DNA of 64,000 nucleotides from Burkholderiaceae bacterium (GTDB lineage Bacteria; Pseudomonadota; Gammaproteobacteria; Burkholderiales; Burkholderiaceae_C): positions 1-64,000 of the forward strand of contig JAGOPK010000016.1 in the NCBI GenBank assembly GCA_017992055.1. The letters are read 5' to 3'. Both the position numbers and the translations under genes were made by a program. The notes beneath the pieces were generated by a model. The model did no database searches. It saw only the letters and a list, made by a program, of their open reading frames with translations, and was not told the origin of the DNA. Within the stretch, counting starts at the first letter, position 1; each line of letters starts with the position of its first letter. This document shows positions 15,942 through 39,557 of the stretch, in pieces.

Positions 15942-18737
15942 TCACCCTGCCTCGGCTTCAAAGCGATGGCGGCCGCCGACCACGGTCTGTGCCGGCTGGC
16001 CCGGCAGCTCGATGCGGGCCGGCAGGCCCGGCGGCAACCGCAGCTCGTGCCAGCAGCGGCCATCGTCGCCCACGCCCCAGGCGGCGTGCAGCCGGCCCTG
16101 CACCGTGTCGTGCCAGGCCTGGCCACTGCCCAGGCGGGCATCCATCAGCGGCCGGCAGCGCAGGCTGGCAAAGCCGGGCTCGGCGGCCTCCAGGCCGGCG
16201 ATGCGGCGGTAGAGGAAGCCGGTCACCGCGCCCAGCGCATAGTGATTGAAGGAATTCATCGCCAGGTCACCGGTGTCGCCGTTCCAGCGCTCCCAGATGG
16301 TCGTGGCGCCGCGGCTGACCATGTAGCCCCAGCCGGGAAACTCGGTGCGCAGCAGCAGGTCCACCGCCAGGCCGGCATGGCCCTGCTCGGCCAGCACGTC
16401 CAGGCTGAACGGCGTGCCCAGGAAGCCGGTGGACAGCAGCGTGCCGCGCCTTCGGATGTCGGCCGCCAGCCGGTCGGCCGCGGCCTGCTGCAGCGCGGCC
16501 GGCACCAGGCCGAAGGCCAGGGCCAGGATGTGGCTGCTGTGGCTGCCGTTGCCGATGCGGCCATCGTCGGCCACGAACTCGGCCTGGAAGGCCTGCAGCA
16601 CCCGCGCATGCCAGGCCTCGAAGTGAGCGGCCCGCTCGCCTCGGCCGCTGGCCCGCGCCAGCTCGGCCATCATCGCCAGCATGCGCGCCCAGCAGGCGCT
16701 GGCCGACAGCAGCTTGGGCGTGGTCTCGTCCATCAGGTTCACCGCGTCCAGCGACAGCCAGTCGCCGAAGTCGACCTGGCGCCGCTGCCGCCACAAGCCA
16801 TCGCCGTTGGGCTCGGCGATCCAGGCCATCCAGCGCTCCATCGACGGCCAGTGCTCGTCCAGCACCGACAGGTCGCCATAGTGGCGCCACAGCGTGTGCG
16901 GCAGCACCACGCCGGCATCGCTCCAGCCCGGCGCGCCGGCCGCCGGCAGGGCCGGCGGATTGGTATCCATGTAGGCGCCGCCGGGCTGCTGGCTGGCGCG
17001 CAGATCGGCCAGGAAGCGGGCGGTGAAGCCGCGCACGTCCATGTTGTAGGCGGCGGTGGGCCAGAAGATCTGTGCATCGCCGGTCCAGCCCAGGCGCTCG
17101 TCGCGCTGCGGGCAGTCGGTGGGCAGGCCGACGAAGTTGCTGCGCTGGCTCCACAGCGTGTTGTGCCACAGGCCTTGCACGATGGGCTGGCTGCTGCTGA
17201 GCTGACCGGTGATGGCCAGGTCGCTGTGCAGCACCACGCCGGCGATCTGCTCGGGTGACAGCTCGCCGGGCCAGCCGCTGAGTTGCACGTAGCGGAAGCC
17301 GTGGTAGGTGAAGCGCGGCTGCCAGGTCTCGCCGTCCGCATCGCCACGCAGGATGTAGCGGTCGGTGCAGCGCGCTGCACGCAGATTGCGCATGTCCACG
17401 CTGCCGTCCTCGGCCAGCAGCTCGGCATGGCGCAGCGTGATCTGGCGGCCGGCCTCGCCGCGCACGCGGATGCGGCAGACGCCGGCGAAGTTCTGGCCGA
17501 AGTCAACCACCCAGTCGCCCGCATGTTCACCGCCGTCCAGCCGGGTGATGCGCTGCGGCCGCAGCGTCAGCGTCTCGCGGATCGGTGGGCTGTGCTGCAG
17601 GTGCAGCGCACAGGGGGGTCGGGGCGCGGCCCAGGCGGCCGGCCAGCCGCTGTCGTCGAAGCCCGGATCGCACCAGCCGGCGGGCTCCAGCCGCGCATCA
17701 TGGGTTTCGCCGTGGTAGATCTCGGAGAACAGCACCGGCGCCGGCGCGCTGCACCAGCCGGCCTGGGCCGCGTCGCTGCCGATGCACAGGCGCTGGCCGC
17801 CGGCCAGTTCCACCGCCAGATGCAGCCACAGCCGGCGCGGTGCCTCGCCGAACGGATAACGTCCACGGCCGATGGCCTCGCTGGCGTAGAAGCCGTCGGC
17901 CACCATCACGCCCAGCGCATTGCCACCCTGGCTGAGCAGGGCCGTGACATCGTGGCGCTGCACCAGCAGGCGCTGCCGGGTGTCGCTGTTCTCCGGCGCC
18001 AGCTGCGCATCGCCGACCCGCCGGCCGTTGATCTGCGCCTCGTAGCCGCCCAGCGCGGTGATCCACAGCGTGGCCGAGCGCGGCGCCGCCGGCAGCGTGA
18101 AGCCGCGACGCAGCAGCCGCGCCGGCTGCGGCGCCGTGGGCCGCCAGGCCAGGTCACAGGCCGGCGTCTGCGCGGTCTGCCAATCACCTGGCGCCATGCG
18201 CTGCACGGCGCCGGCCGCGGTCCAGCCCTCGGGCGGGTCCAGCCGGGTGCACCAGTCGCTGGCCTGTGGCGACAGGAAGCGCCGGCCCGCGGCAGCGTCG
18301 CCGCCCGCCGACAGCCGCGCCGCCAGCCCACCTTCCAGCGGCTGCTTGATGAACGGATGAAACAGCCGCACCAGCACCGCCAGCCGGTGGCTGCCACGGG
18401 CCAGGCGGCCCAGGTCCAGGTCGCGGAGTTCACGGCCGCCCAGCACGTCGTCGCTGGCGTGCAGGGCCACGCCATTCAGCCACACGCCGGCCAGGCCTTT
18501 TTGCGCGGCGATCAGCAGGCGCGCCTGCGGCCAGTCCTCGTCGAGCTCGAAGCGCCAGACGAAGGCGCGCGGCCGCTCGTCCTGCGGTGCCTCGCCCCAG
18601 GCCCAATGCCAGCCGGCCTGGCGCTCGGCCAGTTCGGCCGCGTCTTCGGCAGCCAGCCAGGGCGTGCCGCCGGCGATGTGGTCCAGTTCGGCCTGGCCGG
18701 CCTGGTGCGGTGGGAGGGTTTCGGTCAACAGGGTCAT
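15942..18737 (-). CDS. GH78 alpha-L-rhamnosidase
   Basis: 931 residues, the standard multi-domain bacterial GH78 rhamnosidase: N-terminal beta-sandwich domains (to about 420), then the (alpha/alpha)6 barrel and a C-terminal beta domain. Catalytic features fit family knowledge: Asp541, Glu547 (general acid), Trp551 and Asp554 in DCPQRDERLGWTGD, and the base Glu in TTIWERWNG followed by FNHYALG with the conserved His. No signal peptide is visible, so it probably acts on rhamnosides in the cytoplasm. ATG at 18737 overlaps the GH43 stop. Last gene of the eight-gene operon starting at the TonB receptor. Confidence 0.94.
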   Translation of the reverse strand: MTLLTETLPPHQAGQAELDHIAGGTPWLAAEDAAELAERQAGWHWAWGEAPQDERPRAFVWRFELDEDWPQARLLIAAQKGLAGVWLNGVALHASDDVLGGRELRDLDLGRLARGSHRLAVLVRLFHPFIKQPLEGGLAARLSAGGDAAAGRRFLSPQASDWCTRLDPPEGWTAAGAVQRMAPGDWQTAQTPACDLAWRPTAPQPARLLRRGFTLPAAPRSATLWITALGGYEAQINGRRVGDAQLAPENSDTRQRLLVQRHDVTALLSQGGNALGVMVADGFYASEAIGRGRYPFGEAPRRLWLHLAVELAGGQRLCIGSDAAQAGWCSAPAPVLFSEIYHGETHDARLEPAGWCDPGFDDSGWPAAWAAPRPPCALHLQHSPPIRETLTLRPQRITRLDGGEHAGDWVVDFGQNFAGVCRIRVRGEAGRQITLRHAELLAEDGSVDMRNLRAARCTDRYILRGDADGETWQPRFTYHGFRYVQLSGWPGELSPEQIAGVVLHSDLAITGQLSSSQPIVQGLWHNTLWSQRSNFVGLPTDCPQRDERLGWTGDAQIFWPTAAYNMDVRGFTARFLADLRASQQPGGAYMDTNPPALPAAGAPGWSDAGVVLPHTLWRHYGDLSVLDEHWPSMERWMAWIAEPNGDGLWRQRRQVDFGDWLSLDAVNLMDETTPKLLSASACWARMLAMMAELARASGRGERAAHFEAWHARVLQAFQAEFVADDGRIGNGSHSSHILALAFGLVPAALQQAAADRLAADIRRRGTLLSTGFLGTPFSLDVLAEQGHAGLAVDLLLRTEFPGWGYMVSRGATTIWERWNGDTGDLAMNSFNHYALGAVTGFLYRRIAGLEAAEPGFASLRCRPLMDARLGSGQAWHDTVQGRLHAAWGVGDDGRCWHELRLPPGLPARIELPGQPAQTVVGGRHRFEAEAG

Positions 18738-20302
18738 GGTTGCAGGTCCAGGCGGACCTCGGTGAAGGCCGCCGGCACGCTGGCCGGCCGACCGCGGCCG
18801 CTGGCATACAGGCCCAGCATCACGCCGGTGAAGCCGCCGGCCACCTCGGCCGACAGCATCGCGCATTCGGTCGTGCCCAGCGGCTGCAGCGGGCCACCCG
18901 CCGGACCGGCCAAGTACCGGTGCTCGCGCGCATCGGCCACGATGCGCAGGGCCAGGTCACCCTCGGGCGCCGGGCCCAGATCGTCCTCGCGCCACAGCGA
19001 ACCCAGCCGGCGGCGCAGCAGCAGCCGGCAGCCCGTGGCCTGGCGGCGCAGCAGGATCTGGTGGTGGAAGCGCTCGTTGGCATAGACCACCAGGCCGGCC
19101 TCCTCCCCATCGGCCTGGGGCTGGAACTGCAGCCGGGCGCTGAACACGCAGTCAAACTGCGTCTGCCAGCGGCCGACGAAGGCCGGCGTGGCGGCCTCGT
19201 CGTCCAGCGTGGCCGACTGGCCGTACAGCAGCAGCCAGCCCGGGCGCTGGCTCAGCGACCACAGCGGCTGCAGCGGCGTGCGCAGCACGCTCCAATCGGC
19301 CGAAAGCCGATCGGGCGCTTCGGCCGTGGCCATGCCGCTGGCGGCCAGCGCAGGCTGCGGCCAGGGCTGCAGCGGCGGCAAGGCCTCGGCCGGCAACTGC
19401 AGCGGCACGCGCCCCCAGCCGGTGCCGGCCAGGCCCAGCTGCGGCCAGCCCTTGGCATCCCATTGCAGCGGCAGCACGCAGGTCTCGCGGCCCAGGTGGT
19501 GGCGCTGCGGCGCAAACGGCACGGGCGCTGGCCGCGTGGCCAGCAGCACCGCCCACCAGCGACCGTCGCTGCCCTGCACCAGGTCGGCATGGCCGGTGCA
19601 CTGCAGCGCATGGTCCAGGCTGCGATGGCTGAGCACCGGGTTGTGCGGACAGGGCTCGAAGGGGCCGAACGGATGATCGGAGCGGGCCACCGTGACCATG
19701 TGGCCGGCCTCGGTGCCGCCCTCGGCGATCAGCAGCAGCCAGGCCTGGCCGACGGCATACAGATGCGGGCCCTCGGGCGCCTTGGCGCCGCTGCCGGCCC
19801 AGATCAGGCGGCGCGGGCTCAGCAGGCGGCCGCTGTCCAGGTCGATCTGCGCCTGGTAGATGCCCTTGGGCTCGTCGCCATGGAAGCCGCCGTTGCCGGT
19901 GATCAGCACCCGGCCATCGGCCAGGAAGCACAGCGATGGATCGATGCCCGGCCAGTCCAGCGTCACCGGATCGGACCAGGGGCCCTCGGCGCGCTCGGCC
20001 CAGAGATGGACATTGCGCCGCTGGTGCACGACGGTGGTCACCAGGTGGAAGCGGCCGCCATGGTGGCGCAGCGTGGGCGCAAACAGGCCCAGGCCGCTGG
20101 GGCAGCCGCTCAGGTCCAGCTGCGACGGGCGCGTGAACACATGGCCGATGGGCCGCCAATGCGCCAGGTCGCGGCTGTGGAACAACGGGATGCCGGGCCA
20201 GGTGTGAAAGGAACTGGTGGCCAGGTAGAAATGTTCGCCGACCCGGCAGATGCTGGGGTCGGGATGGCAGCCCGGCAACACCGGGTTGTCGACCCGGCTC
20301 AC
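18734..20302 (-). CDS. GH43 beta-xylosidase or alpha-L-arabinofuranosidase
   Basis: 522 residues. The five-bladed GH43 domain (about 1-310) has the catalytic base Asp in CHPDPSICR, the transition-state Asp in GIDPSLCF and the acid Glu in APEGPHLY. The C-terminal half is a beta-sandwich domain like that of family 43 xylosidases. No signal peptide. GTG start at 20302 overlaps the esterase stop (GTGA). The open frame continues far upstream but that is shadow of the esterase. Probably removes arabinose or xylose from imported rhamnose-containing oligosaccharides; specificity cannot be read from sequence alone. Confidence 0.9.
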   Translation of the reverse strand: MSRVDNPVLPGCHPDPSICRVGEHFYLATSSFHTWPGIPLFHSRDLAHWRPIGHVFTRPSQLDLSGCPSGLGLFAPTLRHHGGRFHLVTTVVHQRRNVHLWAERAEGPWSDPVTLDWPGIDPSLCFLADGRVLITGNGGFHGDEPKGIYQAQIDLDSGRLLSPRRLIWAGSGAKAPEGPHLYAVGQAWLLLIAEGGTEAGHMVTVARSDHPFGPFEPCPHNPVLSHRSLDHALQCTGHADLVQGSDGRWWAVLLATRPAPVPFAPQRHHLGRETCVLPLQWDAKGWPQLGLAGTGWGRVPLQLPAEALPPLQPWPQPALAASGMATAEAPDRLSADWSVLRTPLQPLWSLSQRPGWLLLYGQSATLDDEAATPAFVGRWQTQFDCVFSARLQFQPQADGEEAGLVVYANERFHHQILLRRQATGCRLLLRRRLGSLWREDDLGPAPEGDLALRIVADAREHRYLAGPAGGPLQPLGTTECAMLSAEVAGGFTGVMLGLYASGRGRPASVPAAFTEVRLDLQP

Positions 20303-21249
20303 TGCCGCGCCAGCCAGGCCAGGTAGCTGTCGAACCAGCCGTCGCTGGTGTTGCCGCGTGGCGCCATCAGGCCGAAGCCGTGGTTGCCCCGCTCGTACAA
20401 ATGCAGTTCCACCCGCTGGCCGGCGCGGCGCCAGTCCTGCACGATGTCGAAGTGATCGGGCGGGAACAGCGCATCGTCGGCGGCCTGGGCCAGAAACAGC
20501 GGCGGCACCGGTGCACGCGGCCGTGTGCTGGCAAAGCCGCCGTAGATCAAGGCCAGGCTGTCGGGCATCTGCGCCGGTTCGGCGCGCTCGACCAGGGCCC
20601 GGCCGGTGCGCGCGCCGGCCGAGAAGCCGATCAGGGCGATGCGCGCGGCGCTGAAGCCCTGCTCGGCCGCATGGGCGCGCAGCCAGGCCATGGCCTGCAG
20701 CGCATCGTCGACCGCCGGGCCGTGGGCGGCCAGGTCGATCGGCGCCTTGGCCGCGCCGGGGGCAAAGCGCTGGGCGATCTCGGCATTCACCAGCTCGGCA
20801 AAGGCCGTGTCGTCCACCGGCGTGGGCATCACGCGGTAGACCAGCACATAGGCGGTGTAGCCCGCCGCAGCCAAGCGCTGGGCCACCGGCAGGCCCTCGT
20901 TCTCGATGGCCAGGAACTTGTAGCCGCCGCCGGGCAGCACCAGCACGGCCCGGCCCTTGCCCGGCCCGTCCGCCTGGCCGGCCGTCGGCCGCAGCGCATA
21001 CAGCTGGGCCCGCGTGCTGTTGCGCAGCACACGCTCGCGGATCAGGCTGGTCCACTGGAAGGCCGGGCCCGAGCCCTGGCCCAGCTCGATGGGCACGGGC
21101 AGGGCCATCGGCGTGGCCGGCTGGGCGCGGAACATCGGCACCGACGGCGGGGCCGCGGGCGCCGGGGTCTGGGCCGCACTCTGGGCCGCAGCCATGGACA
21201 GCACGGCCCAGGCCAGGCCGGCCGACAGCCAGCGATCACGCGCCATCAT
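20299..21249 (-). CDS. Exported alpha/beta-hydrolase (acetylesterase-like)
   Basis: 316 residues. A Sec signal peptide (residues 1-27, ending AAQSAAQ) is followed by an alpha/beta-hydrolase of the acetylxylan-esterase/BD-FAE type with oxyanion segment LVLPGGGYKFLA, nucleophile elbow GFSAG, an Asp in AADDALFP and a His in RGNHGFG. Likely removes acetyl or other ester groups from the glycoside substrate in the periplasm. Two adjacent ATGs (21249 and 21246) are possible; the first overlaps the preceding gene's stop. It is a relative of the hydrolase at 40392-41435, with the same PGGGF/Y, LVYRV and SAGAR pattern. Confidence 0.88.
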   Translation of the reverse strand: MMARDRWLSAGLAWAVLSMAAAQSAAQTPAPAAPPSVPMFRAQPATPMALPVPIELGQGSGPAFQWTSLIRERVLRNSTRAQLYALRPTAGQADGPGKGRAVLVLPGGGYKFLAIENEGLPVAQRLAAAGYTAYVLVYRVMPTPVDDTAFAELVNAEIAQRFAPGAAKAPIDLAAHGPAVDDALQAMAWLRAHAAEQGFSAARIALIGFSAGARTGRALVERAEPAQMPDSLALIYGGFASTRPRAPVPPLFLAQAADDALFPPDHFDIVQDWRRAGQRVELHLYERGNHGFGLMAPRGNTSDGWFDSYLAWLARQ

Positions 21250-22265
21250 GTCTTCTCCTTGCTCACCGCGGCCTGCAGCCGCAGCTTGGCCAGCAGGTCG
21301 GCGATCACCGCGCGGGCCTCGATGCGCTCGCACAGCAGCAGCTCGCGCGGCATGCCGGTCGCCGCGCCATCGGGCCGCGGCAGCAGGGCCTGCGCCGGCA
21401 CCGGCCGCAGCGGGCCCTGGCGGTCCAGCACCGCCGCCTGCACCAGGGCGCTGTCGCCCAGGGTCACGGTCGGCCCCAGCTGGAGGAAGGGCGGCAGCTG
21501 CAGGTAGCGGCCATGCAGCCAGTCGCCCAGGGCCGAGATCGGCCGCAGATCGGCCTCCAGCTCGGCCACCGACAGCGTCAGCTGGCGATAGGCCTCGCGC
21601 GGCACCACGCGCACGGCCAGCCCCGGCTGCCACAGCACCTGGCGCGCGGCCTCGACATCGGTGGCCAGGTTGTATTCGGGCTCGCCGCGGCCATCCAGCG
21701 CGCCGCCGATCCACACCAGGGTCAGGCGCGGGGCGATCTGCGGCGCCAGGCGCAGCGCGGCGGCCACATTGGTCAGCGGTCCGCCACAGGTCAGCCACAG
21801 CGGCAGTGGGTCGTCGCGCAAGGCCTCGTCGACGATGGCCCGGGCGGCCGGGCTGACCTGGGCAGCTCCGACGCCAAAGCCCTCGGCCCCGGCCAGCACC
21901 GGACAGGGCAGGCCCAGCTTGCCGGCCCGGGCCAGCTGCAGCACCTGGTCGCGGCCCTTGGCGGCGGTGCGCCCGGCCGGCTCGCCGGCCAGCGCGGCCA
22001 GCCGCGCATCCAGCGCCGAACTCGTCACCAGCACCGTGCGCGCCGTGGGGCTGAGCCACTGGTGGGCCAAAGCGAACAGGCCGTCGGGATCGCCGGCAAA
22101 GTCGTTGTCGACGATGACCCGCACCGCGGCCTGCTGGCCGATGCGGCCGGCGGCGGCGCCGGGCGCTGCAACGGCTGGACCCAGGCCAGCCAGGCCGCCG
22201 ATCCCGGCCCACCCGGCCAGGGCCTGGCCCAGCAGCCGGCGACGCTGCCAGCCGCCCTGCCTCAC
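21246..22265 (-). CDS. Nucleoside-hydrolase-like protein with export signal
   Basis: 339 residues, inosine-uridine preferring nucleoside hydrolase (IUNH) fold. The N-terminal metal-site motif reads DNDFAGDPDGLFAL instead of the textbook DxDxGxDD, and a later GGPLTNVAAAL matches the family. It begins with a twin-arginine-like signal (RRRLLGQALAGWAG) and hydrophobic stretch, suggesting export. IUNH-like proteins hydrolyse N-ribosides, but those in polysaccharide loci may act on other furanosides, and the altered metal motif makes the reaction uncertain. GTG start at 22265 overlaps the stop of the GH1-amidohydrolase gene. Confidence 0.8.
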   Translation of the reverse strand: MRQGGWQRRRLLGQALAGWAGIGGLAGLGPAVAAPGAAAGRIGQQAAVRVIVDNDFAGDPDGLFALAHQWLSPTARTVLVTSSALDARLAALAGEPAGRTAAKGRDQVLQLARAGKLGLPCPVLAGAEGFGVGAAQVSPAARAIVDEALRDDPLPLWLTCGGPLTNVAAALRLAPQIAPRLTLVWIGGALDGRGEPEYNLATDVEAARQVLWQPGLAVRVVPREAYRQLTLSVAELEADLRPISALGDWLHGRYLQLPPFLQLGPTVTLGDSALVQAAVLDRQGPLRPVPAQALLPRPDGAATGMPRELLLCERIEARAVIADLLAKLRLQAAVSKEKT

Positions 22266-24823
22266 TGCGGCTCCTTGTGGAAGCGCCCGTCCTTCATGAT
22301 GGCGCGCAGCCTGGCCTTGTTCTGCAGGATCGCCACGTCCTCGGTGGGATCACCCTCCACCAGCAGCAGGTCGGCCAGGAAGCCCTCGCGCAGCTGGCCC
22401 AGCTCGTCGGGCCGGCCCATGATCTGCCCACCCAGCGCGGTGGCCGCATGCAGGGCCTCGGCCGGCGTGTAGCCGAAGTGCTGCACCCACAGCTCCAGGT
22501 CGCGGGCATTGCGGCCGTTGGGGTTGAACGGAAAGCCGTAGTCGCCGCCCGGCAGCAGGCGCAGGCCGCGGCGGCGCAGCTCGGGCACCAGCTTCTTCTG
22601 GTGCTCCAGCACGGTGGCCGCGTCCTGCTTCATGTGCGTCATGTCGAAGTGCGGCGGCGGGTTGGCATCCAGCGTGGCCTGCACGATGCCGATGCTGGGG
22701 GCGATGAAGACCTGGTCCTTCACCGATTCCAGCAGGTCCAGCGCCTCCTCGTCCGCGTAGGTGCAGTGATAGAGCACACGGAAGCCGGCCTTGACGCCCA
22801 GCTTCACCGCTGCCGCGGCATGGGCATGGCCGGTCAGCCACAGGCCCAGCTCGCGCGCGGCCGCGCCGGCGGCCATCAGCTCTTCTTCGGTGTAGAGCAG
22901 CTGCTGCGAGGCGCCGGGCTTGAGCGCACTCTCGCCCGAGATCAGGAACTTCACGGCCTGGGCGCCGATGTCCTTGCAGCCCTGGACGAAGGCCGCCACA
23001 TTGGCCGGCCCCACGCCATGCTCGTCGACCTTGCCGGGGTCCAGCAGCGAGCCGTCGCTGGGCGGCTCGCGCTCCACCGACGAGGCCACCAGGCGCGGCC
23101 CGGGCATGCCGCCGGAGTCGATCATCTCCTTCAGCGCCGGCTCGATGCGCTTGCCCAGGGCCCCGGCCGAATAGGCGCTGGTGAAGCCATGGTCCAGCAG
23201 GATGCGCGCATTGCGCGCTGCCGTCAGCGTCAGCTCCTCGGGCGGCAGGCTCATGCCGGGCACGAACTTCTCCACGCTGGTCGGCCAGGTCAGGTGGGCA
23301 TGGGCCTCGGTCAGGCCGGGCATCAGCACGCCGCCGCGGCCGTCGATGAGGCGGGCGTTGTCGCGCGGCACCCGGGCACCCTCGCGGGCGATGGCGCTGA
23401 TGCGCTGGCCGTCCACGCGCAGCTCGCCGGCAAAGGGCGCGCCGCCCGAGCCGTCGAAGATGCGCACGTTGGCGAAGACGATGCCGGGCTGGCTGGCCGG
23501 CGGGATGTAGACATGGTCCAGCGCCAGATCCTGGGCCGGCCCGGGCTGGGCCTGGGCCTGCAGCCCGTCGGGCAGGGCATTGGCCCGCGCCACCTCCCCC
23601 AGCCAGTGGCCGCTGGGCTTGATGCTGCGCTGCTGGGTGGCGCGGTCCACCGCGATCAGGCCAAAGCGCTTGGCATAGCCGAACATCCACTCGTAGTTGT
23701 CGAAGGCGCTCCAGCAGGTGTAGCCGATCACCGGCACGCCGTCGGCCATGGCCGCGCCCAGGCTGGCCAGGGCGCGCTGCAGGAAGACGACACGGCGCGG
23801 GTCGTCGTCGCCGCAGTAGCCGTTTTCGGCAATCAGCAGCGGCAGCTTCAGCTCGTGGGCCACCCGCCGCAGCACCGCACCCAGGGCCTCGGGCGCAAAC
23901 TCGTAGCCCATGCCGGTGGCGGCCTCCGGACCGGCCACCTGGCCATGGGCGGCATAGATCTCGCGCGTGTAGTTGGAGAACGCGAAATAGTCGTCGCCGT
24001 CGATCACCGGCAGCCACTGGCGGAAGTTCAGCTGCCACTGGCGTGCGGCCAGCTGCTCGCCACCGGGCAGGAACTGGGGCTGCGACAGCGCCAGCGACAG
24101 GCCGACCTTCACCCCCGGGGCGACACGGCGTATGGCCGCACGCGCCGCACGGTGGGCCGCGGCCACGATGGCCTGGCCCTGGGTGTCACCGGCCATCAGA
24201 AACGAGCAGTAGGTGGCGGCATCGGTGCCGCAGGCGCGGGCCGCGGCCTCGCGCCAGGCCGGCGCACGCCACTGGCCGGGGTCCACGCCCACCGGGGGCA
24301 CGATGTCCAGCTCGGAGAACAGGCCGTGCAGCAGCACGCCGATGTTGCATTCGTTCATCGTCAGCACATGGCCGACGCCGCTGCCCAGTGCGGTCATGAC
24401 CTGCTCGACATAGCGCGCAAACAGGCCCGGGGTGCGCGCATCGCGCCAGCCGCCCAGGGCCATCAGCCACTGCGGCGAGGTGAAGTGGTGCAGCGTGACC
24501 AGGGGCTGCAGGCCATGGACCCGGCAGGCGTCGACCACGGCGCGGTAGTGCGCCAGCGCCGCGGCATCGAACTCGCCTTCGCGCGGCTCGACGCGGGCCC
24601 ACTCCACCGAGAAGCGGTAGGACTTGAGCCCCAGCGAGGCCAGCAGCGCGATGTCGGCTTCAAAGCGCGTGTAGTGCTCGATGGCGGACGCGCTCTTGTC
24701 GGCATAGGGAGAGCCATCGGCCCATTCTTCGGCCCAGGTGTCGCAATTACTGTTGTGGCCTTCCACCTGGTGGGCGGCGGTGGCCGCGCCCCAGAGGAAG
24801 TCGGGCGGAAACTGGATGCTCAT
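22262..24823 (-). CDS. Two-enzyme fusion: GH1 beta-glycosidase plus imidazolonepropionase-like amidohydrolase
   Basis: 853 residues in one uninterrupted frame. Residues 1-415 are a GH1 barrel: start FPPDFLWGAATAAHQVEG, acid/base Glu158 in TMNECN (the usual NEP is NEC here), nucleophile Glu333 in IAENG, and the SAFDNYEWMFGY subsite. A Pro/Ala-rich linker (about 415-447) joins a metal-dependent amidohydrolase (about 448-853) with His508-x-His510, candidate carboxylated Lys625, His666, His686 and Asp761. Both active sites look complete. No signal peptide. ATG at 24823 follows the symporter gene by 40 nt. Presumably removes beta-glucose and then opens a ring or hydrolyses an amide or lactone in the aglycone (inference). 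Confidence 0.9.
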   Translation of the reverse strand: MSIQFPPDFLWGAATAAHQVEGHNSNCDTWAEEWADGSPYADKSASAIEHYTRFEADIALLASLGLKSYRFSVEWARVEPREGEFDAAALAHYRAVVDACRVHGLQPLVTLHHFTSPQWLMALGGWRDARTPGLFARYVEQVMTALGSGVGHVLTMNECNIGVLLHGLFSELDIVPPVGVDPGQWRAPAWREAAARACGTDAATYCSFLMAGDTQGQAIVAAAHRAARAAIRRVAPGVKVGLSLALSQPQFLPGGEQLAARQWQLNFRQWLPVIDGDDYFAFSNYTREIYAAHGQVAGPEAATGMGYEFAPEALGAVLRRVAHELKLPLLIAENGYCGDDDPRRVVFLQRALASLGAAMADGVPVIGYTCWSAFDNYEWMFGYAKRFGLIAVDRATQQRSIKPSGHWLGEVARANALPDGLQAQAQPGPAQDLALDHVYIPPASQPGIVFANVRIFDGSGGAPFAGELRVDGQRISAIAREGARVPRDNARLIDGRGGVLMPGLTEAHAHLTWPTSVEKFVPGMSLPPEELTLTAARNARILLDHGFTSAYSAGALGKRIEPALKEMIDSGGMPGPRLVASSVEREPPSDGSLLDPGKVDEHGVGPANVAAFVQGCKDIGAQAVKFLISGESALKPGASQQLLYTEEELMAAGAAARELGLWLTGHAHAAAAVKLGVKAGFRVLYHCTYADEEALDLLESVKDQVFIAPSIGIVQATLDANPPPHFDMTHMKQDAATVLEHQKKLVPELRRRGLRLLPGGDYGFPFNPNGRNARDLELWVQHFGYTPAEALHAATALGGQIMGRPDELGQLREGFLADLLLVEGDPTEDVAILQNKARLRAIMKDGRFHKEPQ

Positions 24824-24863: not shown

Positions 24864-26231
24864 TCAGGCCGGCACGGCAGCCGCGCGGCGGGCCGCCAGC
24901 TCGTCGCGCAGCTGGGCCACCTCGGCCCGGCCCAGCGGATAGCCCCAGCCGATCAGCGCGGCAATGGCCAGGGCCACGGCGCCGCACACCGGTCCCATCA
25001 GCGCGGCAATGCCCCACAGCGCCTCGGCCGGCTGCTCCGGCCGGCCGGCCAGGTAGCCGGTGGCCGACAGCACGCCGCCGACCACGGCGCTGGCCGCGCC
25101 GGCGCCGATCTTCTGCGTGAAGTTGATGCTGGCGAACAGCGTGCCGACGACACGCCGGCCGCTGTCGCGCTCGATGGCGTCGGCGGTGTCCGACAGCAGC
25201 GACTGGGTGATCGGCGCGCCGATGCCCAGCGCCAGGTTGGTGGCCAGGGCCAGGGCCAGCACCGCCGGCACCGGGCCGGTCATCACCGCCAGGTAGCCCA
25301 TCGAGACCAGGCCCATGGCGGCCGTGGCCGTGACCAGCACGCGCTTCTTGCAGTAGCGCCGCGTCAGCCGGTCGCTGATGACCACGCCCAGCATCAGGCC
25401 CAGGCCCGACAGGCCCATGAACGGCCCGATCAGCGCCGGCTGCTTGAGCACCGCGGCGAAGAAGTACACGCCGGCGGCCAGCGGCAGGCCGATCAGCAGG
25501 GCCAGCAGCGCAAAGGCCAGCAGGCACACGCGCCAGCCGCGGTTGCCCCACAGCGCGGCGAAGTCGGCGCGCAGGTCCGGCGCCCTGACCGCGCCGGCGC
25601 TGACCCGCTCGCGGGTGCCGAAGGCGCAGACCCAGGTCAGCAGCGTGCCCGCGCCGCCGAAGATCAGCGCCGCACGCCAGAAGCCCTGGGCCGGCTGGCC
25701 GTCGGCCAGCAGGTCCTTGACGATGGGAAAGCCGGCGCCGCAGCCGACCACGCAGACGAACATCAGAAAGGAGTTCACGCCCAGCAGGCGCAGGCGCTCG
25801 TCGGGATCGGGCGCCACCAGGGCCGGCATGGACTGGAACGGGATCATCACCGCGCTGTAGCACCACCACAGCGCGGTATAGGTCAGCACCACCCAGGCCA
25901 GGCGCGCCGTGGGATCGGCGAACGGCGGCACGGTGAAGGCGGCGACGAAGGCCAGGCCCATCAGCGGCGCGGCAAACATCAGGAACGGCCGGCACTGGCC
26001 CCAGCGGCTGCGCGTGCGGTCGACCCAGCGGCCCACGCAGATGTCCCACACCGCATCGGCCAGGCGCACCAGCAGCAGCAGGCTGCCGATCAGCGCGGCG
26101 CTGAGGCCCACCACGTCGGTGTAGAAGTACATCGCCATGCCGCCGGTGGCGGTGACGGCGGTGGGGAACAGGTTGCCGCAGCCATAGGCGAGCTTCTCGC
26201 CGAAGGACAGCTTGGGGGAGGGATTCATCAT
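24864..26231 (-). CDS. GPH-family sugar:cation symporter
   Basis: 455 residues with about 12 hydrophobic segments. Typical of the glycoside-pentoside-hexuronide:cation symporter family (MelB/XynB-like): N-terminal KLAYGCGNL, DICVGRWVDRTRSRWGQCRPF after TM2, and a paired basic loop DRLTRRYCKKR in the second half. Imports a mono- or oligosaccharide across the inner membrane for the intracellular glycosidases of the operon. Two consecutive ATGs are possible at 26231/26228. It lies 6 nt after the GH106 gene. Confidence 0.92.
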   Translation of the reverse strand: MMNPSPKLSFGEKLAYGCGNLFPTAVTATGGMAMYFYTDVVGLSAALIGSLLLLVRLADAVWDICVGRWVDRTRSRWGQCRPFLMFAAPLMGLAFVAAFTVPPFADPTARLAWVVLTYTALWWCYSAVMIPFQSMPALVAPDPDERLRLLGVNSFLMFVCVVGCGAGFPIVKDLLADGQPAQGFWRAALIFGGAGTLLTWVCAFGTRERVSAGAVRAPDLRADFAALWGNRGWRVCLLAFALLALLIGLPLAAGVYFFAAVLKQPALIGPFMGLSGLGLMLGVVISDRLTRRYCKKRVLVTATAAMGLVSMGYLAVMTGPVPAVLALALATNLALGIGAPITQSLLSDTADAIERDSGRRVVGTLFASINFTQKIGAGAASAVVGGVLSATGYLAGRPEQPAEALWGIAALMGPVCGAVALAIAALIGWGYPLGRAEVAQLRDELAARRAAAVPA

Positions 26232-26237
26232 CTGACC

Positions 26238-29129
26238 TCAGGCAAGGCACCAGCGCGTGGCTGCTGCGGTGGCGGTGAACAGGCGCACCGGGCCCAGCAG
26301 GCCGGTGGGCAGGCGCTGCAGGCGGCGGCCGGGCAGCGGGATGCCGCCGGGGCGCTGCGGGTCGCGGCAGGCGTTTTCGGGCCGGTTGGCCACGCGGATG
26401 TGCAGCCGGTTGCGGCCGGGGCGCAGCGCGGCGGCGAGGTCGTAGACAAACGCGGCCTCGCAGCCGGTGACCGCCGGCGCGTCATTGAGCTGCACGCTGG
26501 CGGCATCGGCCACCTGGCCCAGGTCCAGCCACAGCGGCCCGGCCTGCAGCGCCGCGCCGTCCAGCTCGAAGTCCAGCCGGTAGTGCAGCTCGCCGGCGAA
26601 ATCGGCCCACGGCGCCAGCGCCGGCTGCCGTGACAGGTCGTGCAGCTCGGTCCAGGTCTGCTCGAAGGCGATGCGCCGCCCGCCCAGGCCGCGGCCCTGG
26701 GCCTGCACCTGCCAGGGGCCGGCCAGGCGCTGCTCGAAGGCCGGAGCGGCGGTGGCGGGCCGGGCCGGTGACAGCGGCCGGCAGTCGTCCACCGCGGCCA
26801 GGCGCAGCAGCCGGGCGCCGCCGGCCGGCAGCATCACCGGCACCGCGCCCTGGCCATCGGCGGCCAGGCGCTCGATGCGGCCGGTCCAGCCATGCCACAG
26901 CTCGGCGCCCTGGCCCGGCTGCAGCGGCAGGGCCAGGCGCTGCGGCCGGGCCTGCGGGTTGTGCAGGAACAGCCAGCGCTGGCCGGCGTCCTCGCGCAGA
27001 TGCCAGTTCAGCATGGCGCCCGGCTCGGCCGGCAGCTCCAGCACCGGCGCCAGGCCGGCGGCACGCAGGGCCGGGCCGATGCCGGCCGCGGCCACCACCC
27101 GCTGGCCGTCGCGCAGCGCCTGCTGCATGGCCTGCTGCACACGCTGGTCGCGCCGGGCGGCGTCCAGCCAGCCCTCCTCGCGGTCGGGCGCCCGGTCCAG
27201 GGCCCAGACCTGCAGGCCGGCCCCGGCGGCCGCGGCCAGGTGCTCGGCCAGCTCGGCACGCAGCGCCGGCAGGGCCGGCAGCAGCAGGGCCGGGTAGCGG
27301 TGGCCGCCGGGCATGACCAGGGCGCCCTGCTCGATGCGCGCCGACATCAGCGTGGCCGGCGAGATCCAGTCCCAGTCCAGCCCGGCCTGCTGCAGCGAGG
27401 CATGCCAGGCCGGCGCTTCCTCCTGGCCGGCCGCGCCGAGAAAGGCGAACAGGTCCAGCGGGGCCAGCACCGCCACCGGCACCACCGCACGGCCACGCTG
27501 CAGCACGGCCTGGCAGCGCGCCAGGTAGTCGGTCAGCGGGCGCAGCAGCGGCCACAGCGGGTTGTTGTGTGCATCCAGCGGCGTGCCGATCTCCATCGCC
27601 TCGAACGCATACCAGGGCGGATCGTCATCGCTGTCGTCATCGCTGCCGGCCAGCGGCGCGCTGGCACCATGGGCCACCAGCTGCTGCACGCCGGCGGCGA
27701 AAAACGCATCGGCGCGCTCGCGCAGCTGCTGCGGCGTGACCGCCAGGCCTTCGATCAGGAAGCAGAAGGCCTCGGCGCTGACCCGGGCCCGGCCCTGCTG
27801 GTGGGCGGCCGAGCGCGCCACGCGCAGAAAGTGCGGCGCAGCGCCACCGGCCAGGTCCTCGGTCTCGGGGATGCCGGCCAGGCCATAGGCCTGCAGCCAG
27901 TCCACCGGCGCGCCATGGGCCTGGATCTTGGCCTGCACGCCATGGCGACCGGCCCAGTCGGCAAACGGTGCGTACAGGCGCTCCAGCATCAGCTCGGACA
28001 CGGTCAGCCGGTAGTCGGCACGCACCCGCGGCCCGGCCTCGGCGGCCTCGAACAGCGGCGGGCCGCTGCGCGCCTGGAAGCAGTTGCGCCAGCCCGGCTG
28101 CAGCAGCAGCGGCAGCCAGGGTCGCAGCGCATAACCCCGGCGCTGCGCGAACTGGTCTTCGAAGTCGTCGCACCAGGGCAGGTCGACCGGGATCTCCAGG
28201 CTGTCGACGAACACCGAGCGCCAGGCGCGGCCGGCCTGGGCCTGCCACTGCGGCCAGCCGGCATCGGCCACGCGCCAGGCATGGGCGTCGAAGGCCTGGC
28301 GGTTCAGCGGATCGGCCGCCAGCTGCGGGCCGCAGCCGGCGGCCTCGGCCAAGCGCTGGTCGCTGACGAAGCGGCGCAGCACGATGATCTGCCAGGTCCC
28401 CGGCGGCACCTGCCAGTCCAGGCTGCCATCGGCCTGCAGGCGATCGCCGAGGTCGATGCAGCTGGCCGGGTCCAGCTGGCCGGCGGCGCGCACGCGGCCC
28501 CAGCGATCGGCCAGGGTCAGCGGCGGCACGAAGCCGTCGAACGGCGCCAGCTCGGGCGCGCTGCCACGCAGGGCCAGCACGGCCACGGTCTGCTCGCGGG
28601 CGTCGATGCGCTGCGGCCAGCCGGGCGGCAGCTGCTGCCCGGGGTCGATGTGGCCATCCTGCTCCAGCCGCGTGCCGATGCGCTGCGGCCGCTGCGGCTG
28701 GGCCGGCCGGCCACGCCAGCGGCCCGGGCCCTGCACCGGGGTCCAGTCCAGGCTCAGCTCCTGGGCCGCCAGCTCGGGCGTGATGGCCTCGCCGCCGCCA
28801 AAGGGCCAGCAGGAGCCGAAGGTCAGGTCCACGCTCAGGCCCAGCCGGTCGGCCTGGTCCATGACCCGGGCCACGGTGTCGAACCAGTCGGGCGTGAACA
28901 CCTGGTGCACGCGCCGGGCATCGACCCGCCCGGCCTCCAGCACGGCATCCAGCCCGCCGCGGAAGGCCTGGATCTCGACCCCGCCCCAGCCGGCCTCGGC
29001 AAAGCCGCGCAGCTGGGCGCACAGCGCGTCGGCATCAACGGCGCCGCCGGGCCACCACCAGCGCAGCGCCGGCCGTTGCGCCGGGCCGGGCTGCTGGAAC
29101 CAGGCCGCAGGGGACGAGGCTGCCGTCAT
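26238..29129 (-). CDS. GH106 alpha-L-rhamnosidase
   Basis: 963 residues. N-terminal region matches GH106 (RPALRWWWPGGAVD, GFAEAGWGGVEIQAF, then VDLTFGSCWPFGGG), a barrel with ancillary beta domains, and a C-terminal galactose-binding-like sandwich (LDLGQVADAASVQLN). GH106 enzymes release alpha-L-rhamnose, for example from rhamnogalacturonan or flavonoid glycosides. No clear signal peptide. ATG at 29129 shares one base with the TonB receptor stop (TGATG). The open frame extends into the receptor gene but that part is shadow. A second, unrelated rhamnosidase family (GH78) closes the same operon. Confidence 0.88.
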   Translation of the reverse strand: MTAASSPAAWFQQPGPAQRPALRWWWPGGAVDADALCAQLRGFAEAGWGGVEIQAFRGGLDAVLEAGRVDARRVHQVFTPDWFDTVARVMDQADRLGLSVDLTFGSCWPFGGGEAITPELAAQELSLDWTPVQGPGRWRGRPAQPQRPQRIGTRLEQDGHIDPGQQLPPGWPQRIDAREQTVAVLALRGSAPELAPFDGFVPPLTLADRWGRVRAAGQLDPASCIDLGDRLQADGSLDWQVPPGTWQIIVLRRFVSDQRLAEAAGCGPQLAADPLNRQAFDAHAWRVADAGWPQWQAQAGRAWRSVFVDSLEIPVDLPWCDDFEDQFAQRRGYALRPWLPLLLQPGWRNCFQARSGPPLFEAAEAGPRVRADYRLTVSELMLERLYAPFADWAGRHGVQAKIQAHGAPVDWLQAYGLAGIPETEDLAGGAAPHFLRVARSAAHQQGRARVSAEAFCFLIEGLAVTPQQLRERADAFFAAGVQQLVAHGASAPLAGSDDDSDDDPPWYAFEAMEIGTPLDAHNNPLWPLLRPLTDYLARCQAVLQRGRAVVPVAVLAPLDLFAFLGAAGQEEAPAWHASLQQAGLDWDWISPATLMSARIEQGALVMPGGHRYPALLLPALPALRAELAEHLAAAAGAGLQVWALDRAPDREEGWLDAARRDQRVQQAMQQALRDGQRVVAAAGIGPALRAAGLAPVLELPAEPGAMLNWHLREDAGQRWLFLHNPQARPQRLALPLQPGQGAELWHGWTGRIERLAADGQGAVPVMLPAGGARLLRLAAVDDCRPLSPARPATAAPAFEQRLAGPWQVQAQGRGLGGRRIAFEQTWTELHDLSRQPALAPWADFAGELHYRLDFELDGAALQAGPLWLDLGQVADAASVQLNDAPAVTGCEAAFVYDLAAALRPGRNRLHIRVANRPENACRDPQRPGGIPLPGRRLQRLPTGLLGPVRLFTATAAATRWCLA

Positions 29130-31429
29130 CAGAAGCGGTAGTCGGCCGTCATGCCCACGCTGCGGAACGAGTTGGCGCCCAGCGAATGCGCATAACCCGA
29201 GCCGCCGCCCTTGCCCGGCAGCGGGTAGAGGATGGCATTGGGCACACGCTCGTCGCCGAGGTTGCGCACGAACAGCGCCACGCCCCACTTGTCGTCGGGG
29301 CTGCGCAGCGCGGTGCGCAGGCCGGCGATGGCATGGGCCTTGAAGCCGCAGTGCTCGTCCAGCGTATTGCACAGGCGCACGCGGGTCTTGTAGGTGAGGT
29401 CGGCGCCGATGGTCCACTCGTGGTCGCCCAGCACCGACATCGCATACTGCGCGCCCAGCACCAGCTTGCCCTTGGGCGAATACAGCAGGCGCTGGCCGCC
29501 GACGTCGTTGCCGTCGAAGCTGAAGCCGGCCGGATAGCGCGTGCCCAGCACCGCGGCGGCGCCCAGGTTCAGCGTCAGCCCCGGCAGCGGGCGGGCGCGC
29601 AGGTCCAGCTCGGCGCCATAGGTGGTGACGTCGGGCACGTTCAGCGGGATGCAGCTCAGCGCGCCCACGGCGCTGAGCGTGCAGTTCTGCTCCTGGAAGT
29701 CCTTCACCGAGCTGCGGAACAGCGCGATGTCGGCATCGAGCTTGCGGTCGGCCGTGGCCAGCTTCAGGCCCAGCTCCAGCGAGGTGGAGATCTCGGGCTT
29801 GACGATGTTGCCCAGGCCGCTGCCGCTGGTGGCGAGGGCCGCGATGACCGTGCTGTTGTCGATCTGCGGGCCCTTGTAGCCGCGCGCCAGCGTGGCATAG
29901 AGGTTGGTGCCGCGGTCCAGCGCGTACTGCAGGCCCAGCTTGCCCGACAGATTGGTCTGCGTGCTCTGGTTCTGGCTGGTCTTGGTGGTGTTGGGCAGGG
30001 CAAAGCCGGCAAAGGCCACCGTCGTCACCTGCGACTGCTCGTCGGCCACGCGGTCCTTGGTGTAGCGCAGGCCGGCCAGCGCCGACAGCTTGTCGTCGAG
30101 CTTGTACGAGCCCTGGCCGAACAGCGCCCAGGAGCGCATCTCGGTGTCGTTGACATTGACGTTGAGGATGGAGCGCGGCACCGGCGGCGACGGCGCATAC
30201 GGCGAGGGCAGGATCACCGTCTGGTCGTCCTTGCTGCCCTGGCTGTCGGAATAGAAGGCGCCGGCGGTCCACTCCAGCGCCGCCTTGGACGGCGAGGTCA
30301 GGCGCAGCTCCTGGGTGATCTGGCGGATGCGCACCACGCCCGGCCCGTTGCGCACCTTGTCGTAGCCCTTGGACATGTCGATGGTCACGGTGTCGGGGCC
30401 GGTCTCGCGCTCGCGCCAGGCGCTGATCGAGGTCAGCGTCAGGCCATTGCCCAGGGTCCAGTCGATCTGGCCCGACAGGCCCTGCACACGCACGCGGGTG
30501 TACTCGGGGCCGTCCGAGCAGACCTGGTTGTTCTCGGCGTTGACGGTCACGCCGCAGGCGGCGAACTCGGCCAGCGCGTTGTGGCCCATGGCGCTGGTGG
30601 TGTTGGCGACGAAGGGCGCGAAGAACACCGCATTGCGGCTGGTGGTGGTGTCGTGCTCGGCGATCAGGTTCACCACCAGGTCGGCCGAGGGCTTGTACAG
30701 CAGGCGCGCACGCAGGCCCTCGCCCTGGGTCACGCTGTCGGCATTGAGAAACACATTGCGGTAGACGCCGGACAGCCGGTCGCCATGGGCGGTGACGCGC
30801 AGCGCCGCGGTCTCGCCCAGCGGCAGGTTGACCGCGCCGCGCAGCGAGCGGTTGTGGGTCTCGCCACCGGCCAGCTCCAGCGTGCCAAAGCCCTCGAAGC
30901 GCTTGAGCACCGGCGCCTTGCTGACCATGTTGATGACGCCGGCCGAGGCGTTCTTGCCGAACAGCGTGCCCTGCGGGCCGCGCAGCACCTCCACCCGCTC
31001 CAGGTCGAACAGCGCGCCGCCGGCGGTATTGCCCAGGGCCACGCCGTCGACGACCACGCCCACCGAGCTTTCGGCCGAGGTGGTGAACACCGCCGTGCCG
31101 ATGCCGCGGATCGAGGCGCTGCCGCCGGGACCGCCGGCCTTCTGGTCGCCGAATTCCAGGCCGGCCGTGGCCTTGGCCAGGTCGGCGATGTCGCGCAGGC
31201 CTTCCTTTTCCAGCTGGTCGGCGCCCAGCACGGTGATGGCCAGCGGCACCTCCTTGATGTTCTGCGCCCGCTTCTGCGCGGTGACGACCACGGTCTGCGG
31301 CTCGGCCTTGGTCTCGGCCTTGGCCTCGGCGGCGGGCTGGGTCTGGGCCAGGGCGGCGACGGCCTGCGACAGCAGGCCCGCCGCCAGCAGGGCACGCGAC
31401 AGGGGATGTGGGGAAGGCTGGCGATGCAT
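29129..31429 (-). CDS. TonB-dependent outer-membrane receptor
   Basis: 766 residues. Signal peptide 1-28 (ending AVAALAQ), an Ala/Lys/Glu-rich stretch, plug domain with QTVVVTAQKRAQNIKEVPLAITVL, RGIGTAVF and VEVLRGPQGTLFGKNASAGVINM, then a beta-barrel ending in Phe (MTADYRF). Expected to take oligosaccharides or glycosides across the outer membrane with TonB energy. No SusD partner is encoded, as usual for proteobacterial receptors. First gene of the glycoside operon, with ATG at 31429 preceded by ACGGAGACACC; divergent from the LacI regulator. Confidence 0.94.
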   Translation of the reverse strand: MHRQPSPHPLSRALLAAGLLSQAVAALAQTQPAAEAKAETKAEPQTVVVTAQKRAQNIKEVPLAITVLGADQLEKEGLRDIADLAKATAGLEFGDQKAGGPGGSASIRGIGTAVFTTSAESSVGVVVDGVALGNTAGGALFDLERVEVLRGPQGTLFGKNASAGVINMVSKAPVLKRFEGFGTLELAGGETHNRSLRGAVNLPLGETAALRVTAHGDRLSGVYRNVFLNADSVTQGEGLRARLLYKPSADLVVNLIAEHDTTTSRNAVFFAPFVANTTSAMGHNALAEFAACGVTVNAENNQVCSDGPEYTRVRVQGLSGQIDWTLGNGLTLTSISAWRERETGPDTVTIDMSKGYDKVRNGPGVVRIRQITQELRLTSPSKAALEWTAGAFYSDSQGSKDDQTVILPSPYAPSPPVPRSILNVNVNDTEMRSWALFGQGSYKLDDKLSALAGLRYTKDRVADEQSQVTTVAFAGFALPNTTKTSQNQSTQTNLSGKLGLQYALDRGTNLYATLARGYKGPQIDNSTVIAALATSGSGLGNIVKPEISTSLELGLKLATADRKLDADIALFRSSVKDFQEQNCTLSAVGALSCIPLNVPDVTTYGAELDLRARPLPGLTLNLGAAAVLGTRYPAGFSFDGNDVGGQRLLYSPKGKLVLGAQYAMSVLGDHEWTIGADLTYKTRVRLCNTLDEHCGFKAHAIAGLRTALRSPDDKWGVALFVRNLGDERVPNAILYPLPGKGGGSGYAHSLGANSFRSVGMTADYRF

Positions 31430-31506: not shown

Positions 31507-31616
31507 TTGTGTTCGGCCCTGCGCTGCCTCAACCATCGGGGACAACCCGCGATGAACGGCCTTCAGACCGCGCTGCGGGGCCGGAAGGATGCGCTATCGT
31601 TGCGCGGCAACAACCC

Positions 31617-34607: not shown

Positions 34608-34656
34608 GTCTTGTCTCCTGGTTTCTGATGTTTCTGATGTGTTGGAGGGGCGCGCT

Positions 34657-36129: not shown

Positions 36130-36130
36130 C

Positions 36131-39019: not shown

Positions 39020-39445
39020 TCAGGCGTGCTGCAGCCCGGCGGCGGCAATGCCGGCGATGACGATCTGCTCGTCCTCGTCGCCGGTGCCGCCCGAGGCCCC
39101 GGCCGCGCCCAGCACCCGGCCATCGGCGGCGCAGATCAGCACCGCGCCGGTCTGCGGGATGAACTTCTGCGCCGACGCCGCCGACACCGCGCCGAAAAAC
39201 GCCGGCAGCGCCTTGGCGCGCTCGGTGAGCACGCGGCTGTTGACGCCCATGCCCACCGCGGCCGCGGCCTTGCCCAGCGCGATGTCCAGGCGCAGCGCGC
39301 TGGCACCGTCTTCGCGCGCGCTGGCCACCACCTGGGCGGCGGCATCCACCACCACCACCCCCATGGGCTTGTAGCCGGCGGAACGGGCCGCCTGCAGGGC
39401 GGCGGTGATCAGGGTCTGGGCCTGGTCCAGGGTCAGGGAGCTCAT
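39020..39445 (-). CDS. GlcG/HbpS-family protein
   Basis: 141 residues, the usual size of HbpS/GlcG/Cob(I)-adenosyltransferase-like domain proteins: helix TLDQAQTLITAALQAARSAGYKPMGVVVVD, then KFIPQTGAVLICAADGRVLGAAGASGGTGDEDEQIVIAG. Family members occur in many catabolic operons; some bind heme, and an accessory or chaperone role is usually assumed. No signal peptide from ATG 39445. First gene of the meta-cleavage operon, 112 nt from the divergent GntR start. Confidence 0.85.
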   Translation of the reverse strand: MSSLTLDQAQTLITAALQAARSAGYKPMGVVVVDAAAQVVASAREDGASALRLDIALGKAAAAVGMGVNSRVLTERAKALPAFFGAVSAASAQKFIPQTGAVLICAADGRVLGAAGASGGTGDEDEQIVIAGIAAAGLQHA

Positions 39446-39477
39446 CGTCTTGGGTGTGCAAAAACGGGATGATCGTA

Positions 39478-39493: not shown

Positions 39494-39520
39494 GTCTTCA
39501 TGCAACCGTTAAGACATAAA

Positions 39521-39548: not shown

Positions 39549-39557
39549 CCAGGCCCG

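What the first reader, a model, noticed from the sequence alone, without database searches (positions are those of the whole stretch)
22262..24823. One polypeptide joins a GH1 beta-glycosidase to an imidazolonepropionase-like amidohydrolase
A single 853-codon frame holds two complete, unrelated hydrolases: GH1 with Glu158 and Glu333, and an amidohydrolase with HxH (508/510), Lys625, His666, His686 and Asp761. I do not know this fusion as a described enzyme. It suggests channelled deglycosylation followed by ring or amide/lactone hydrolysis of an aglycone, within an operon carrying two rhamnosidases. The GH1 acid/base loop is also atypical (NEC for NEP).
Basis: partly seen in the sequence, partly recalled or inferred. 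Interest (0 to 1): 0.8.

Follow-up and report, generated by a model that had tools for sequence, protein, structure and literature searches.

The report
Beta-glucosidase fused to aromatic-pathway amidohydrolase
An unnamed bacterium makes one protein that seems both to cut the sugar off a plant aromatic compound and to carry out another step in breaking that compound down, and comparison with relatives suggests that the joining went with moving the sugar-cutting step inside the cell.

Summary
The fusion is real, on the minus strand (22262-24823, ATG, 853 codons): a complete GH1 beta-glycosidase, a 32-residue linker and a complete amidohydrolase (AMH). Five distinct genomes carry it, gap-free through the linker, with all named catalytic residues kept. 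NEC replaces NEP in these five and in none of 29 unfused rows. The AMH is not an imidazolonepropionase. In most relatives it stands alone beside aromatic ring-cleavage genes (FAD monooxygenase, VOC dioxygenase, FAH-family hydrolase): 64 of 76 loci have at least one of the three. That operon is in the window at 32731-39505, and 4 of 5 fusion genomes hold monooxygenase and VOC 3.5-16 kb from the fusion; the fifth lacks both. Unfused GH1s near AMHs look Tat-exported (28 of 29); unfused AMHs show no leader (0 of 73); the fusions have none, and a GPH symporter was found in 4 of 5 fusion genomes and in no unfused locus. Most likely one pathway for plant aryl glycosides (flavonoid rhamnoglucosides are a guess): GH1 frees the aglycone in the cytosol, AMH acts at ring cleavage. 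Direct channelling is unsupported.

The parts
22262..24823 (-). GH1-AMH fusion protein, 853 aa, ATG start (first start codon after the upstream stop), no leader seen
23582..24817 (-). GH1 beta-glycosidase half, residues about 3-414 (Glu158 in NEC, Glu333)
23486..23581 (-). linker, residues 415-446, gap-free in five fusions
22265..23485 (-). amidohydrolase half, residues about 447-853 (His508, His510, Lys625, His666, His686, Asp761)
24864..26231 (-). GPH-family (MFS_2) glycoside:cation symporter, 40 bases upstream of the fusion
   Evidence: (TIGR00792 246 bits, cut-off 231.35)
26238..29129 (-). GH106 alpha-L-rhamnosidase, no leader seen (start chosen by eye)
29129..31429 (-). TonB-dependent outer-membrane receptor
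31509..32708 (+). LacI-family regulator (true start possibly further in)
32731..33624 (-). HSL/BD-FAE-type alpha/beta hydrolase
33621..34607 (-). TctC-type solute-binding protein
34657..36144 (-). FAD monooxygenase, MhpA-like subfamily NF004829 (475.3 bits, cut-off 390)
36131..36973 (-). FAH-family hydrolase
36994..37899 (-). VOC extradiol dioxygenase-like protein
37896..38963 (-). Amidohydro_2 protein, nearest to ACMSD decarboxylases
39020..39505 (-). HbpS-like protein
39540..40271 (+). GntR-family regulator
21246..22265 (-). nucleoside-hydrolase-like protein (IU_nuc_hydro), overlapping the fusion's stop codon
20299..21249 (-). Abhydrolase_3/BD-FAE-like esterase
18734..20302 (-). GH43 with GH43_C2 domain
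15942..18737 (-). GH78 alpha-L-rhamnosidase, no leader seen (start chosen by eye)

Best explanation
One cytosolic bifunctional protein of a plant aryl-glycoside catabolic cluster. Proposed order: a TonB receptor and a GPH symporter bring in the intact or partly trimmed glycoside; cytosolic rhamnosidases GH106 and GH78 remove rhamnose; the GH1 half (Glu158/Glu333) removes the last beta-glucose. The aglycone is hydroxylated by the FAD monooxygenase, its ring is opened by the VOC extradiol dioxygenase, and the AMH half hydrolyses an intermediate of that stage (my guess: a lactone or pyrone left by ring fission), beside the FAH-family hydrolase, the ACMSD-like protein and the HSL esterase. The fusion would thus join the first and a later step of one pathway, and mark a lineage in which deglycosylation moved from the periplasm to the cytosol. 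Seen in sequence: fusion, conserved residues, gene neighbours, presence or absence of leaders, symporter. Inferred: substrates, order of steps, metal content, location, any benefit of the joining.
For: Five fusions with constant spacing and full catalytic sets. In 4 of 5 fusion genomes (own, G548, G116, G557) the monooxygenase and VOC genes lie 3.5-16 kb from the fusion on the same contig. AMH linkage: 64 of 76 loci have at least one of FMO (300 bits or more), VOC or FAH, 38 all three; 0 of 20 control 18-kb stretches hit any of the 13 profiles (the profiles were built from families chosen because they recur in the AMH loci, so this shows density only). Hydrogenophaga flava L044: lone AMH 86%, FMO 81%, VOC 75%, FAH 75%, AH2 71%, HSL 61%. 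N. aromaticivorans pNL2: AMH-FMO-HbpS-VOC-FAH-abH in a row, 37-55% to the window. A GH1 of the same subfamily is fused (3 loci), 67-131 bases upstream on the same strand (6) or about 1-6.4 kb away, in 31 of 76 loci in all; a GH106 or GH78 in 23 of 76. With one rule for both sets, Tat-like leaders in 28 of 29 unfused GH1s and in 0 of 73 unfused AMHs. GH106: leaders in 13 of 13 readable unfused loci, none in window, L139, L142 (by eye). Window GPH: hits at E 1e-20 only in fusion loci, 4 of 5 genomes.
Against: The AMH substrate is unknown; its nearest solved relatives are dipeptidase- or ochratoxinase-like at 125 bits or less. Fusion genome G544 (NC_groundwater, 94% complete) has no match to the window's monooxygenase or VOC at the thresholds used, and its FAH/TctC/HSL genes sit on the fusion's contig near a second, unfused AMH. 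12 of 76 AMH loci show none of FMO/VOC/FAH. More distant AMH paralogues (about 38-45%) are common in the order and I did not study their neighbours. Pelomonas KK5 has no GPH gene on its 19.7-kb contig. The AMH tree does not unite the fused rows: lone AMHs L044-L046 lie among them, though one clade is not rejected (AU p 0.074 with four fused rows; 0.117 with five). Leader calls rest on motif and hydropathy. GH78 of unfused L106 shows no clear leader. GH43 and the nucleoside-hydrolase-like gene are unexplained.
Confidence: 0.6

Rival explanations
1. Consecutive-step channelling: GH1 frees an aglycone that is itself an amide, ester or lactone, and the AMH half hydrolyses it at once, before ring hydroxylation.
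For: Physical fusion with constant spacing; GH1 directly before AMH on one strand in six Massilia/Telluria loci; AMH is the gene just before the monooxygenase in N. aromaticivorans and Sphingobium RAC03.
Against: Unfused GH1s look exported and AMHs do not, so in those relatives the halves would not meet; AMH stays with FMO, VOC and FAH where none of the three glycosidase profiles hit, 14 of 76 loci.
Confidence: 0.2
2. The AMH half is a dipeptidase-like hydrolase of N-acyl amino acid or dipeptide bonds (Cc2672- or ochratoxinase-like), cutting amino-acid conjugates of plant aromatics.
For: Closest solved relatives are 2qs8, 9kov, Cc2672 3mtw, then further amidohydrolases with ochratoxinase 4c5y among them; a Xaa-Pro dipeptidase model is the best NCBIfam hit of this half.
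Against: 172 bits against a cut-off of 500; linkage to ring-cleavage genes.
Confidence: 0.15
3. Bystander fusion: two genes of one gene run became one frame and stayed so because both products work in the cytosol, without functional coupling. This can be true together with the best explanation.
For: Halves are co-directional and adjacent in Massilia; the linker changes faster than the domains (aa difference 0.48 against 0.26 and 0.20); lone AMHs L044-L046 lie among the fused ones in the tree.
Against: Kept gap-free in the linker in five genomes, the other four 69-80% identical to the window's protein; NEC is specific to the fused GH1s. The fused GH1 clade is not drawn from the Massilia-adjacent clade.
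Confidence: 0.3
4. Assembly or sequencing artefact, or two proteins from an internal start.
For: None found.
Against: Five genomes; coding signature across the linker; no plausible internal start.
Confidence: 0.02

Closest known systems
GH1 beta-glucosidases 4r27 and SGR_2426 (8kap, 9u98)
   Same: Nearest solved GH1s by sequence (387.8, 285.4 and 281.8 bits). SGR_2426 is a beta-1,2-glucosidase without an N-terminal signal, its location left open by the authors (PMC12369401: abstract and first part of Discussion read).
   Different: Those entries are GH1 alone (414-434 aa); the fused GH1s have NEC for NEP and a C-terminal AMH, in a cluster with aromatic-degradation genes.
Amidohydrolases 2qs8 (Xaa-Pro dipeptidase), Cc2672 (3mtw), ochratoxinase 4c5y
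   Same: Same domain over nearly its full length; conserved HxH, Lys, His, His, Asp (their role as binuclear metal ligands is recalled).
   Different: 125 bits at most; NCBIfam dipeptidase cut-off not met; here fused to GH1, or in relatives near ring-cleavage genes.
ifc isoflavone cluster of Variovorax V35 (PMC11069340, parts 1-3 of 6 read) and fde naringenin operon of Herbaspirillum (passages in PMC11303751, PMC8552027, PMC10799723)
   Same: FAD monooxygenase plus glyoxalase/VOC-type dioxygenase acting on the A ring; 17 of the 38 more distant AMH loci also hold a protein of the group near 2,6-dihydroxypseudooxynicotine hydrolase (2jbw), as ifc does.
   Different: The window monooxygenase is MhpA-like. 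The word amidohydrolase does not occur in PMC11069340 by the search count. Window genes were not compared with Fde or Ifc sequences.
AMH-FMO-HbpS-VOC-FAH-abH gene run of N. aromaticivorans pNL2 (SARO_RS17935 to SARO_RS17960)
   Same: Six window homologues at 37-55% identity.
   Different: AMH unfused and no GH1 annotated in the 29-kb stretch; a search of the held library for six of its tags and accessions found no paper.

Membership tests
GH1 (PF00232) | Pfam gathering score | tested here: met
   219.7 bits, cut-off 22.6
GH1 (PF00232) | acid/base Glu and nucleophile Glu | tested here: met
   Glu158 and Glu333 in 34 of 34 rows
GH1 (PF00232) | usual NEP at the acid/base loop (recalled as usual, not as defining) | tested here: not met
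   NEC in 5 of 5 distinct fusions; NEP in 29 of 29 unfused rows
TIGR03356 BGL equivalog | curated cut-off 478.5 bits | tested here: not met
   243.5 bits
Amidohydrolase family (PF01979) | Pfam gathering score | tested here: met
   72.3 bits, cut-off 25
Amidohydrolase family (PF01979) | HxH, Lys, His, His, Asp | tested here: met
   78 of 78 rows
Imidazolonepropionase HutI (TIGR01224) | curated cut-off 298.15 bits | tested here: not met
   48.8 bits
Xaa-Pro dipeptidase NF051886 | curated cut-off 500 bits | tested here: not met
   172 bits
Binuclear amidohydrolase with carbamylated Lys | metal content and carbamylation of Lys625 | not testable with these tools
   only the residue pattern was seen
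fde/ifc-type flavonoid catabolism | monooxygenase and VOC dioxygenase that act on a flavonoid A ring | tested here: inconclusive
   both gene types present in the window; no Fde or Ifc sequence compared, no activity known
Tat-exported GH1 near AMH | twin-arginine leader | tested here: not met
   28 of 29 unfused GH1s have it; the fusions start at or near the GH1 domain with no leader

The most novel reading that the evidence does not exclude
The AMH is an unassigned core enzyme of aerobic flavonoid (or related aryl) catabolism in Proteobacteria and Actinobacteria, acting on the pyrone or lactone left after the A ring is opened (the kind of step, X2 to X3, for which the isoflavone study could name no gene), and in this lineage it was fused to the deglycosylating GH1 when the whole sugar-removing module moved from periplasm to cytosol.
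Probability: 0.2. Interest if true: 0.75.

Novelty: new variant of a known kind. Interest (0 to 1): 0.5.

Why it matters
It is a natural link, in one chain, between glycoside removal and aromatic ring cleavage, and it ties an uncharacterised amidohydrolase group to a pathway that can be tested in a laboratory strain with the unfused gene (N. aromaticivorans). The change of compartment that seems to go with the fusion is a comparative case of how a catabolic cluster is rebuilt around uptake of whole glycosides. I saw no report of the fusion among the papers listed by searches (titles and openings of abstracts; one search listed none; open-licence papers only; no search of protein-architecture databases was possible).

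Tried and rejected
Assembly error and internal start: rejected. Six Massilia/Telluria hits that looked full-length are two adjacent genes, not fusions. A single clade of fused AMH halves was not obtained: lone AMHs L044-L046 lie among them; with the fifth fusion L114 added the window's nearest AMH is L114 (89%), but the fused rows still need three changes on the tree. Imidazolonepropionase label: rejected. Coumarin and riboflavin pathways: passages of PMC13181038 and PMC12746152 showed no gene set like this one; benzoxazinoids were only thought about. PMC4440368 had none of the five terms sought. A home-made gene caller gave wrong frames in this GC-rich DNA and was replaced by frames picked by homology. 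The plasmid search found no record with 80% of the fusion, of 955 with a match. Pantoea plasmid p33.1_1 has GH1 and AMH near each other at only 29% and 35% identity. My first leader test broke ties between start codons differently for GH1 and AMH; I repeated it with one rule and the result held. Clusters come from stop-to-stop frames and single linkage, so they are approximate; 12 of the 13 profiles were built's clusters and the GH1 profile from the rows. The 76 loci are not independent (several near-identical Acidimicrobiia and Novosphingobium records), and the control is 20 stretches of one contig.
Full report
Observation. The 853-codon frame is on the minus strand at 22262-24823. Pfam finds GH1 and Amidohydro_1 in the one protein. 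Against solved structures the GH1 half matches 4r27 over nearly its whole length, and the AMH half matches 2qs8, 9kov, 3mtw and, lower, ochratoxinase 4c5y.

Reality of the fusion. In genome contigs 76 loci matched. One frame with both halves is in three of them, L038, L039 and L043; six Massilia/Telluria loci that matched both halves have two genes 67-131 bases apart. Among whole genomes the fusion is in 3 of 21 of the genus (own, G548, G544), 2 of 150 of the family sample (own, G116) and 1 of 399 of the order sample (own). G116's copy is identical to L043 and G544's to L039 over the last 600 residues compared, on contigs of the same length (for L009/L043; for L039/G544), so five distinct genomes are known: own, G548 (L114), L038 (G557), L039 and L043. 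Across the linker there is no gap in 320 codon pairs and third positions change most. The only start-type codons in 416-470 are GTG 453 and 470.

The fused GH1. NEC in place of NEP is in all five fusions and in none of the 29 unfused rows. The fused GH1s form one clade (SH-aLRT 100 with four rows; 99 with five, which warns of long branches meeting). They are not part of the clade adjacent to AMH in Massilia, so GH1 and AMH seem to have come together in more than one way; this is inference. In the AMH tree three unfused AMHs lie among the fused ones; one clade is not rejected (AU p 0.074 and 0.117).

What the AMH belongs to. I clustered neighbours and then searched all frames with 13 home-made profiles. 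Of 76 AMH loci, 64 have at least one of FMO (300 bits or more), VOC or FAH, and 38 have all three; 31 have a GH1 of this subfamily, 23 a GH106 or GH78, and 14 have all three aromatic genes with none of these glycosidases; 12 have none of the three aromatic genes. None of the 13 profiles hit in 20 control stretches, but the families had been chosen because they recur in the AMH loci. The window holds the aromatic set at 32731-39505; four of its genes (monooxygenase, VOC, FAH, AH2) are 71-81% identical to those of Hydrogenophaga flava, whose AMH stands alone. N. aromaticivorans pNL2 and Sphingobium RAC03 have AMH, an MhpA-annotated monooxygenase, a heme-binding protein, VOC and FAH in a row. Loci L049 and L050 add a sulfatase and its modifying enzyme (L049 by Pfam; L050 by cluster), which would fit conjugated phenolics.

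Fusion genomes. The window's monooxygenase and VOC have close matches in G548 (67 and 70%), G116 (65 and 72%) and G557 (75 and 79%), each on the contig of the fusion, 3.5-14 kb (monooxygenase) and 6-16 kb (VOC) away. G544 has neither at the thresholds used, although a FAH, TctC, HSL and GntR set lies on the fusion's contig with a second AMH. So for G544 the link with ring cleavage is weaker.

Compartment. With one rule for both sets, a start codon within 70 codons of the domain gives a Tat-like leader in 28 of 29 unfused GH1s and in 0 of 73 unfused AMHs, and a Sec-like leader in 0 of 73 AMHs. The exception, the first GH1 of L055, has RGR where its neighbours have RRR. Four GH1s of the subfamily without an AMH match within their 12-14 kb stretches, L143-L146, also show RR leaders by eye. 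The fusions start at or near the GH1 domain with no leader. GH106 follows: by eye, leaders in 13 of 13 unfused loci where the start is readable (three more, L054, L086, L109, are not), none in the window, L139 and L142; for GH78, no leader in the window, L038 and L139, hydrophobic or lipoprotein-like N-termini in L052, L058, L066 and L072, and no clear leader in L106. The window's GPH symporter has matches at E 1e-20 in L038, L039 and L139 (and copies of those loci) and in no unfused locus; the Pelomonas contig has none. A more distant transporter of this kind could be missed.

Function. From this I infer one pathway: uptake of a glycoside, cytosolic deglycosylation, hydroxylation, extradiol opening, hydrolysis. 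That flavonoid rhamnoglucosides are the substrate is a guess from rhamnosidases, GH1, monooxygenase and VOC, and from the ifc and fde literature (PMC11069340 parts 1-3 of 6 read; PMC11303751, PMC8552027 and PMC10799723 passages). In the isoflavone study the gene for X2 to X3 was not identified; I suggest an AMH as a candidate for that kind of step, without sequence evidence from that strain.

Limits. No structure could be predicted. The AMH's substrate, metal and place in the pathway are open. Loci are partly redundant. The literature searches cover open-licence papers only, and their listings showed no report of the fusion.

Noticed in passing
21246-22265 (-): Nucleoside-hydrolase-like gene with an RRRLLG N-terminus overlaps the fusion's stop codon; no homologue at E 1e-12 in the 76 AMH loci. 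Its role here is unexplained.
   Followed up: partly
20299-21249 (-): BD-FAE-like esterase with what looks like a Sec leader; homologues in 11 AMH loci, among them Novosphingobium, Caulobacter and L038.
   Followed up: partly
L049:12309-15120 and L050: Sulfatase and formylglycine-generating-enzyme-like genes near the lone AMH.
   Followed up: partly
L148 (Pantoea agglomerans plasmid p33.1_1): A distant AMH (35%), FAH, heme-binding and kelch proteins and a leader-bearing GH1 (29%) form a similar cluster.
   Followed up: partly
L039 and L108, one contig (NC_groundwater, G544): The contig carries the fused AMH and, by the FAH/TctC/HSL genes, a second unfused AMH at about 49% identity; no match to the window's monooxygenase or VOC in that genome at the thresholds used.
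   Followed up: partly
18734-20302 (-): GH43 with C2 domain lies in the same strand run; no homologue at E 1e-12 in the 76 AMH loci.
   Followed up: no
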